DNA from: Pyrobaculum oguniense TE7
GTDB taxonomy: Archaea; Thermoproteota; Thermoprotei; Thermoproteales; Thermoproteaceae
DNA length: 64,000 bases
Reading direction: 5' to 3'
Assembly: GCA_000247545.1 (NCBI GenBank)
Contig: CP003316.1
Location: 2,141,233 to 2,205,232 of the forward strand
In this document: positions 30,379-62,504 of the stretch, in pieces
Position numbering within the stretch: the stretch's first letter is position 1
Layout: the number at the start of each line of letters is the position of its first letter
The notes under the pieces: generated by a model
Told to the model about the DNA's origin: nothing
The model's database searches: none
What the model saw: the letters and a program-made list of their open reading frames with translations, nothing else
Made by a program: the position numbers and the translations under genes

Positions 30379-31149
30379 ATGAGTGTTAGAGCATTATTTC
30401 CTAAGGGGAAGGAGCCTCGGTACGTCTTTGAAGTGCTTATAGGAGCTCTTCCTGAGGCGGTCCTGAATTTTTCTCATGACGGCATAAGTTTAAAGGCGCT
30501 GGATCCTACAAAGACTGCGCTTTTCGAGTTAATGTTCCATGCCACTGCACTAGAAGATTACAGCGTTGAAGAAGAAACTAAAGTCGGCATAATCTTTACG
30601 ACATTGAAAGACGTGTTAAAACGTATCGGCGCCACGGAGAAGCTAGAAATAGGAGTAGACAAGGATAGGAACCGCTTCTCCCTTTACGTATATCCAAAGA
30701 AAGGAAAAGACGTTGGGCTAGTTAGGCGCTTCTCGTTCCCTGTAGTCCAGGCAGTTGAAGAGGAAATTCCTGAGCTACCGCTAAGTTTTGATGCCAGTTT
30801 TGAAATGGACGCAGACGTATTTGACGACGTTGTAGCCATGGTGGAGGAGGTCTCCGACTGGATAGAGATCAGAGTAGGGCCGGACTCTGTGACGTTTAGA
30901 GGAGTAGGCGAGGGGGGAAAAGCCGCGGAGGCAGAGTTTACGCACGATAGTGATTCGGTATTTAGCATATCTGCCGATAACCCCGTCTCTGCTAAGTACA
31001 GTGTAGAAATGCTCAGAGATATAAGCAGAAAAATGAAGAGCCTATCAAAACGGGTGAAGATTGAGCTCTCCTTGGGAAAACCGATAAGACTCAGCTACGA
31101 ATTCGCTACCGGCATCTTCACGGCCACTATTGCTCCAAGAGTTGACTAA
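30379..31149 (+). CDS. pcn: PCNA sliding clamp
   Basis: A 256-residue PCNA. Two-domain repeat with the central linker PVVQAVEEEIPELPLSFDA (interdomain connector), DGISLKALDPTKTALFELMF in domain 1 and YSVEMLRDISRKMKSLSKRVKIELS in domain 2 are typical. It tethers polymerases, FEN-1 (44322-45362) and ligase to DNA and is loaded by RFC (20425-22683). Crenarchaea often encode several paralogues; this window holds only one. A TATA-like CTATAAATTA lies about 29 bases upstream of the ATG. Confidence 0.95.
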   Translation: MSVRALFPKGKEPRYVFEVLIGALPEAVLNFSHDGISLKALDPTKTALFELMFHATALEDYSVEEETKVGIIFTTLKDVLKRIGATEKLEIGVDKDRNRFSLYVYPKKGKDVGLVRRFSFPVVQAVEEEIPELPLSFDASFEMDADVFDDVVAMVEEVSDWIEIRVGPDSVTFRGVGEGGKAAEAEFTHDSDSVFSISADNPVSAKYSVEMLRDISRKMKSLSKRVKIELSLGKPIRLSYEFATGIFTATIAPRVD

Positions 31150-31221
31150 TAGTTGCCAAGGTGCAAGAAGTTAGAGGGGCTGAGGGTTTAAGTGTTTTTA
31201 ACTTAGAGATCTTTAAAGAGT

Positions 31222-31274
31222 TAGTGATGTGGGCTGGTATTACAGAGACGTGACGATAGACACCAATTCTGATG
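31222..31274 (+). ncRNA. box C/D guide sRNA, predicted 16S rRNA target
   Basis: C variant GTGATGT (31224-31230), guide GGGCTGGTATTA (12), D' variant CAGA (31243-31246), spacer GAC, C' GTGACGA (31250-31256), guide TAGACACCAATT (12), D CTGA (31269-31272). Spacing is exactly 12-3-12. A TATA-like TTTTTAACTT (31195-31204) is centred about 24 bases upstream. The D' guide is complementary over all 12 bases to UAAUACCAGCCC of the 16S rRNA 530 loop; the five-nucleotide rule points to A535 (E. coli numbering). The D box lies two bases from the stop codon of opposite-strand sdhD. Confidence 0.88.
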
Positions 31275-31625
31275 TCATGTGACAAATACTAATACATAGA
31301 ACATCACAATGCCCGTAATAACCATTATGGCATTTATCAAGAAATCTAAGATCTTCCTCCCTCTTTCTGATTTTATAAGCTCGCCCAATACCCTCCTCAT
31401 TCCGTGAGAGCCGTGTACAACCCAGTCAACCGCCACCACGGCCCAGATTAGTCCCCACCCAATTTTCACAAAGGCGTATGGAATAGTGACAAGGGGATGC
31501 GTAGAGAGGGCTTTATCCAAGGGTATCTCGCCGAGGGCTATTGCAGCGAGTATCACAGCGGGCATTCCAATTACCATTATAAATGCGCCAATTATTAGGA
31601 TTGTTCTTTCTGTACTGGCTCTCAT
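31275..31625 (-). CDS. sdhD: succinate dehydrogenase membrane subunit D
   Basis: A 116-residue membrane anchor with three hydrophobic helices (about residues 9-30, 44-68 and 92-114). The histidine in VDWVVHGSHGMRRVLGEL is a likely haem or quinone-site ligand as in other SdhC/D proteins. The ATG at 31625 overlaps the sdhC stop by four bases; the frame stays open far upstream but that part is antisense-like. Last gene of sdhABCD. Confidence 0.82.
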   Translation of the reverse strand: MRASTERTILIIGAFIMVIGMPAVILAAIALGEIPLDKALSTHPLVTIPYAFVKIGWGLIWAVVAVDWVVHGSHGMRRVLGELIKSERGRKILDFLINAIMVITGIVMFYVLVFVT

Positions 31626-32044
31626 GGCCACGTCTCGGCGCCGTATAGGACTAGATATGTGCCAATTGCGGTTCCTATTATGGTTCCCAACACAGTCAGC
31701 ACAACCATTAGCCAATTCGCCTTGGAGGCGCGTAGCGCTGGCGTGGGCTTTATCGGATCCCTCACGGGCCACCCCTTTATCACGCCTAGTTCTACGAGCA
31801 TGATTCTCAAGCCGTTTATCCCATGTAGCAGTATGGAGAAGACGAAAAACGCCGCTAAGAGCTTGCCTATAGGGGTCATGTCTAGCTTCAAGGCCTCCTC
31901 CCACGAGCCGTAAAGGAGGATTAAGTAAGGCCGGGGGAATATGTATAGCACCAAGTATACCCCGGTGATTCTGTGTAGCAGGAATAGGACACGCTCTAGG
32001 TTTATGACCCTGAACCATTCTCCAATTCCCCTGCCCGCCCTCAT
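31622..32044 (-). CDS. sdhC: succinate dehydrogenase membrane subunit C (cytochrome b556-like)
   Basis: A 140-residue anchor subunit. RVLFLLHRITGVYLVLYIF contains the conserved H-R-x-(T/S)-G signature of SdhC, whose histidine region binds quinone, and FSILLHGINGLRIMLVELG holds the haem-ligating histidine. Three membrane helices are visible (about 18-38, 60-85, 112-135). It overlaps sdhB at its start and sdhD at its end by four bases each, so the four genes are tightly coupled. Confidence 0.88.
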   Translation of the reverse strand: MRAGRGIGEWFRVINLERVLFLLHRITGVYLVLYIFPRPYLILLYGSWEEALKLDMTPIGKLLAAFFVFSILLHGINGLRIMLVELGVIKGWPVRDPIKPTPALRASKANWLMVVLTVLGTIIGTAIGTYLVLYGAETWP

Positions 32045-48438: not shown

Positions 48439-48548
48439 GCCGGGGTGGCCGAGCGGCCCAAGGCGCGGGACCGCCGTAGCGGCGGCGCCAAACTCGAGAT
48501 CCCGTCCCCGTACAGGGGTCGTGGGTTCAAATCCCACCCCCGGCGCCA
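48439..48548 (+). tRNA. tRNA-Ser(CGA) with intron, CCA encoded
   Basis: Acceptor GCCGGGG pairs with CCCCGGC; T arm GTGGG-TTCAAAT-CCCAC; long variable arm TCCCCGTACAGGGGTC, as in Ser and Leu tRNAs; discriminator G73 and encoded CCA (48546-48548) point to Ser. The anticodon stem CGGGA/TCCCG encloses 29 bases; removing 22 leaves CTCGAGA, anticodon CGA. The intron is 48472-48493 (or 48471-48492, as a repeated C makes the cut ambiguous), so it lies at position 31/32 or 32/33 instead of the canonical 37/38. The intron contains a CCGCCG/CGGCGG hairpin. Confidence 0.92.
48472..48493 (+). other. non-canonical tRNA intron
   Basis: A 22-base insertion in the 5' side of the anticodon loop of tRNA-Ser(CGA). 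It would be removed by the archaeal splicing endonuclease from a bulge-helix-bulge or relaxed fold, which I could not draw with certainty. The exon GGCGC just before it can pair with GCGCC near the intron's 3' end. Confidence 0.75.
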
Positions 48549-62197: not shown

Positions 62198-62504
62198 GTT
62201 CTGTTAATTTCAAAATCTCGCTTTGGCCGGGGTCGATCACTGCCAGTGCCATTATTTTATGCGGCCTCTTAGCCGCAGCGCCCAGCTCTATGCTCGAGCC
62301 GGGAAAAACAAATATCGGAATGCCGGCTAGTTTGGCGTAGTATTCAATATCGTCTTTTGCCCACTTAGGCGCGTTTGCCGCTATAATTACCAACTTAGGC
62401 GTACCCGCCAACAACGCTCTTTTCGTTTCTTCGAAGCCTATAACCACGCTTCCCGTGTTGATTGCTACTTGGAGCTCCCTGCCTATATCAATCACGAGGG
62501 CCAC
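62190..62504 (-). CDS. rpl30e: 50S ribosomal protein eL30
   Basis: A 104-residue eL30 of the L7Ae/L30e fold. [40 protein letters not shown] and [16 protein letters not shown] are the conserved kink-turn-binding stretches. It is part of the rpoA2-rpl30e-nusA order. Confidence 0.95.

What the first reader, a model, noticed from the sequence alone, without database searches (positions are those of the whole stretch)
31222..31274. Guide RNA with a 12-base perfect match to the 16S rRNA 530 loop
The D' guide GGGCTGGTATTA is the exact complement of UAAUACCAGCCC, the conserved stretch right after the universal 515-533 sequence as I recall it, predicting methylation of A535. Geometry is 12-3-12 and a TATA element lies upstream. 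The second guide TAGACACCAATT has no assigned target.
Basis: partly seen in the sequence, partly recalled or inferred. Interest (0 to 1): 0.68.

Follow-up and report, generated by a model that had tools for sequence, protein, structure and literature searches.

The report
Known-type rRNA methylation guide RNA gene
This is an ordinary archaeal C/D box guide RNA gene that should direct ribose methylation of the ribosome's decoding-centre helix; relatives in other archaea, with the same two predicted target sites, were published in 2015.

Summary
Window 31222-31274 (+) reads as a complete C/D box sRNA, the only strict C-D'-C'-D match in the 64 kb (none in 60 shuffled windows). The D' guide GGGCTGGTATTA is perfectly complementary to UAAUACCAGCCC in this organism's own 16S gene; the N+5 rule puts the methyl on A535 (E. 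coli numbering). By replicon sizes the genome is Pyrobaculum oguniense TE7, whose published annotation counts 83 predicted C/D sRNA genes. Homologues occur through the order Thermoproteales; in most of the genus they lie between PCNA and succinate-dehydrogenase genes. Where 16S reads CAGCUC instead of CAGCCC, the guide reads AGC instead of GGC, so guide and target change together. That pair of sites is published for Pca sR28, Tte sR114 and Sac sR115, and with a weaker second guide for Iho sR21 (Dennis et al. 2015). In P. oguniense the second guide is mismatched next to box D and may methylate poorly. A new member of a known family; low novelty.

The parts
31195..31201 (+). TATA-like element TTTTTAA, probable promoter
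   Evidence: sequence; TATA-like matches cluster about 26 bases upstream of box C in homologues; function inferred
31222..31274 (+). C/D box sRNA gene
   Evidence: strict motif unique in window; homologues across the order
31224..31230 (+). box C GTGATGT
31231..31242 (+). D' guide GGGCTGGTATTA; target 16S UAAUACCAGCCC, predicted Am535 (E. coli numbering; A512 archaeal)
31243..31246 (+). box D' CAGA
31250..31256 (+). box C' GTGACGA
31257..31268 (+). D guide TAGACACCAATT; core pairs with 16S UGGUGUC, N+5 = archaeal G491 (E. coli 514/515)
   Evidence: published family target
31269..31272 (+). box D CTGA
30379..31149 (+). upstream neighbour on the same strand: PCNA (sliding clamp) gene
   Evidence: ORF; PF02747 and PF00705 above cut-off; adjacent to the sRNA in most of the genus
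31275..31649 (-). 3' part of the convergent gene, probably the second succinate dehydrogenase membrane subunit; its stop codon abuts the sRNA 3' end
   Evidence: ORF; no Pfam match itself, but the next gene upstream matches Sdh_cyt; neighbours by tblastn

Best explanation
This is a double-guide archaeal C/D box sRNA gene. After transcription, probably from its own small promoter, the RNA is expected to form box C/D and C'/D' kink-turns bound by L7Ae, Nop5 and fibrillarin. The D' guide then pairs with 16S 531-542 and fibrillarin methylates the 2'-OH of A535 (archaeal A512). The D guide pairs more weakly with the opposite side of the same helix 18 (16S about 513-519), with the N+5 residue at archaeal G491. 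It may methylate there or mainly help hold the two strands apart during folding. Shown here: gene structure, 12-bp complementarity to the organism's own 16S, conservation, guide-target co-change, and presence of genes for the three protein families. Inferred: expression, particle assembly, methylation and any chaperone role.
For: Unique strict motif in the window, 0 in 60 shuffles. Perfect 12-bp complement to the own 16S gene; 0 of 150 guide shuffles reach it. A sequence model finds matches at E <= 5e-6 in 17 of the 18 other genomes of the family and in many of the order, and those read keep the boxes and both guide cores. Guide position 11 is G where 16S has C (G000, G007, G013, G014, G015, G016, G018) and A where 16S has U (G001-G006, G009, G010), with no exception among the 15 family genomes where both were read. 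The D core is conserved; a shuffled D guide reaches a 7-bp run in the family register only 81 times in 200,000. TATA-like peak near -26. Fibrillarin, Nop and L7Ae families are encoded. Same two sites published for Pca sR28, Tte sR114 and Sac sR115.
Against: No RNA-seq or methylation data were available here. The co-change at guide position 11 may reflect only one or two evolutionary events. In P. oguniense the D guide has two mismatches at positions 2 and 3 next to box D, and by rRNA complementarity alone it is not better than chance (25 of 150 shuffles reach its best score).
Confidence: 0.95

Rival explanations
1. Single-guide variant: only the D' guide works in P. oguniense, and the D guide is decaying or has moved to another target, for example 16S around E. 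coli position 962 (AAUUGGAGUCAA). This is a sub-case of the best explanation, not an exclusive alternative.
For: The D guide end AATT breaks pairing at positions 2 and 3 of the G491 site and gives its best raw score at the AAUUGGAGUC site. G009 shares the AATT end.
Against: The GACACCA core is kept across genera and fits the G491 site in register. The alternative site has a mismatch at pair 7, and its score is reached by 25 of 150 shuffles.
Confidence: 0.35
2. Chance resemblance in an intergenic stretch, with no RNA made.
Against: Unique motif, perfect guide match, order-wide conservation, guide-target co-change and promoter peak.
Confidence: 0.01

Closest known systems
Pyrobaculum calidifontis sR28 / Thermoproteus tenax sR114 / Sulfolobus acidocaldarius sR115 / Ignicoccus hospitalis sR21 (Dennis et al. 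2015, PMC4644070, Fig. 3b)
   Same: D' guide directs 16S A512 (E. coli A535); the D guide points to the G491 site in helix 18, as in Pca, Tte and Sac.
   Different: The P. oguniense D guide ends in AATT, giving mismatches beside box D. The published sR28 letters were not read here; membership was inferred from the two shared targets and from homologues in other genomes.
Pyrobaculum C/D box sRNA families (Lui et al. 2018, 110 families in six species)
   Same: Double guides with both targets within 100 nt (as summarised in PMC7994747).
   Different: The paper itself was not held, so the family number could not be assigned.
Rfam archaeal C/D families sR2 (RF01139) and sR1 (RF01152)
   Same: Aligns end to end with the C/D frame at weak scores of 17.5 and 16 bits.
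   Different: Far below the gathering scores (42 and 45 bits), so not a member of those Rfam families.

Membership tests
Archaeal C/D box sRNA | Boxes C (RUGAUGA-like), D', C' and D (CUGA) in order with guides of about 12 nt | tested here: met
   GTGATGT, CAGA, GTGACGA, CTGA; 12-3-12
Archaeal C/D box sRNA | Guide complementary to rRNA with a Watson-Crick pair at N+5 | tested here: met
   D' guide 12 of 12 pairs, N+5 = A535
Archaeal C/D box sRNA | Core protein families (L7Ae, Nop, fibrillarin) encoded in the genome | tested here: met
Archaeal C/D box sRNA | RNA expressed and bound in an sRNP | not testable with these tools
Helix 18 A512/G491 guide group (Pca sR28, Tte sR114, Sac sR115) | D' guide targets A512 (E. 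coli A535) | tested here: met
Helix 18 A512/G491 guide group (Pca sR28, Tte sR114, Sac sR115) | D guide targets G491 | tested here: inconclusive
   7-bp core in the right register including N+5, but mismatches at positions 2 and 3
Rfam sR1 / sR2 | Score at or above the gathering cut-off | tested here: not met
   16 and 17.5 bits against 45 and 42

The most novel reading that the evidence does not exclude
The D guide of this sRNA in P. oguniense has lost its G491 methylation role and acts mainly as a strand-holding chaperone for helix 18, or has begun to retarget to 16S near 962.
Probability: 0.15. Interest if true: 0.3.

Novelty: new member of a known kind. Interest (0 to 1): 0.15.

Why it matters
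It confirms a conserved guide for the decoding-centre helix and gives a guide-target co-change that supports the published prediction by comparative sequence. It opens no new kind of biology.

Tried and rejected
Rfam at gathering threshold gives only a tRNA in the window; at relaxed threshold only weak sR1/sR2 matches over this gene. The exact D' guide pattern found only three genomes, because many Pyrobaculum guides carry A instead of G at position 11 or differ elsewhere; a sequence model recovered the rest. Two one search hits (L013 in G003, L016 in G009) lack the following boxes and are chance; the true G003 and G009 homologues came from the model. In one search the 16S register for G013, G015 and G016 was set at a wrong GGTAA; the correct 16S was read. 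A genome-wide search for complements of the D guide with one mismatch gave six scattered sites besides the gene itself, not examined further. Lui et al. 2018 and Bernick et al. 2012 are not held.

Full report
What is there. Window 31222-31274 (+) contains GTGATGT - GGGCTGGTATTA - CAGA - GAC - GTGACGA - TAGACACCAATT - CTGA, a complete C/D box sRNA with 12-3-12 geometry. A strict motif scan finds only this site in the window and none in 60 shuffles.

Organism. The genome has a 2,436,033-base contig and 2,452,920 bases in all. [quoted passage not shown] Whether this gene is one of them could not be checked here.

D' guide. The own 16S gene reads GCCGCGGTAATACCAGCCCC, a perfect 12-base complement, and the N+5 residue is A535 in E. 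coli numbering. None of 150 shuffled guides matches as well.

D guide. Placed in the register of the published family, TAGACACCAATT forms seven consecutive Watson-Crick pairs with 16S UGGUGUC, with N+5 21 nt upstream of A535, which is the archaeal G491 site. Counting back from G530 this is E. coli 514; the paper's legend equates it with G515. Positions 2 and 3 beside box D are mismatched. By raw complementarity the guide is not significant (25 of 150 shuffles reach its best score), but in the family register a run this long is rare (81 of 200,000). From the known secondary structure of 16S (own knowledge), the two targets lie on the two strands of helix 18.

Conservation. A sequence model of nine homologues finds matches at E <= 5e-6 in 18 of 19 genomes of the family, the window's own included, and in many of the order. 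The nine model members match by construction; the other nine do not. In 9 of 11 genomes of the genus the gene lies between convergent PCNA and sdh genes. Where 16S has CAGCUC the guide has AGC, and where 16S has CAGCCC it has GGC, in all 15 family genomes where both were read. This co-change may be only one or two events. TATA-like sequence peaks about 26 bases upstream of box C in 23 homologues. Fibrillarin, Nop and L7Ae families are encoded.

Mechanism. The expected mode is standard: a C/D sRNP in which each guide pairs with 16S and fibrillarin methylates the residue at N+5. A535 methylation is the confident prediction. Methylation at G491 is uncertain in this species because of the two mismatches; simultaneous pairing with both strands of helix 18 would also fit the RNA-chaperone idea of Dennis et al., but nothing here tests that.

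Known status. Dennis et al. 2015 (PMC4644070) describe four sRNAs whose D' guides direct A512 (E. coli A535), three of whose D guides direct G491. The present gene is the P. oguniense counterpart by its targets.

Noticed in passing
L054 (G002) 1501-1550 and L058 (G010) about 1501-1551: In these two genomes the sRNA sits in the same PCNA/sdh intergenic region but on the opposite strand (with sdh instead of with PCNA), as if the short cassette had been flipped in place.
   Followed up: partly
L001, 16S rRNA gene of the same genome, after about position 2716: The 16S gene is interrupted by an insert of roughly 0.6-0.7 kb whose reading frame looks like a homing endonuclease (not searched).
   Followed up: no
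window 62211-62480 (-): A second L7Ae-family protein gene lies near the end of the window (place G000:C1:2203443-2203712).
   Followed up: no
window 48439-48545 (+): tRNA gene of 107 bases, longer than the 71-position model, so probably with an intron.
   Followed up: no
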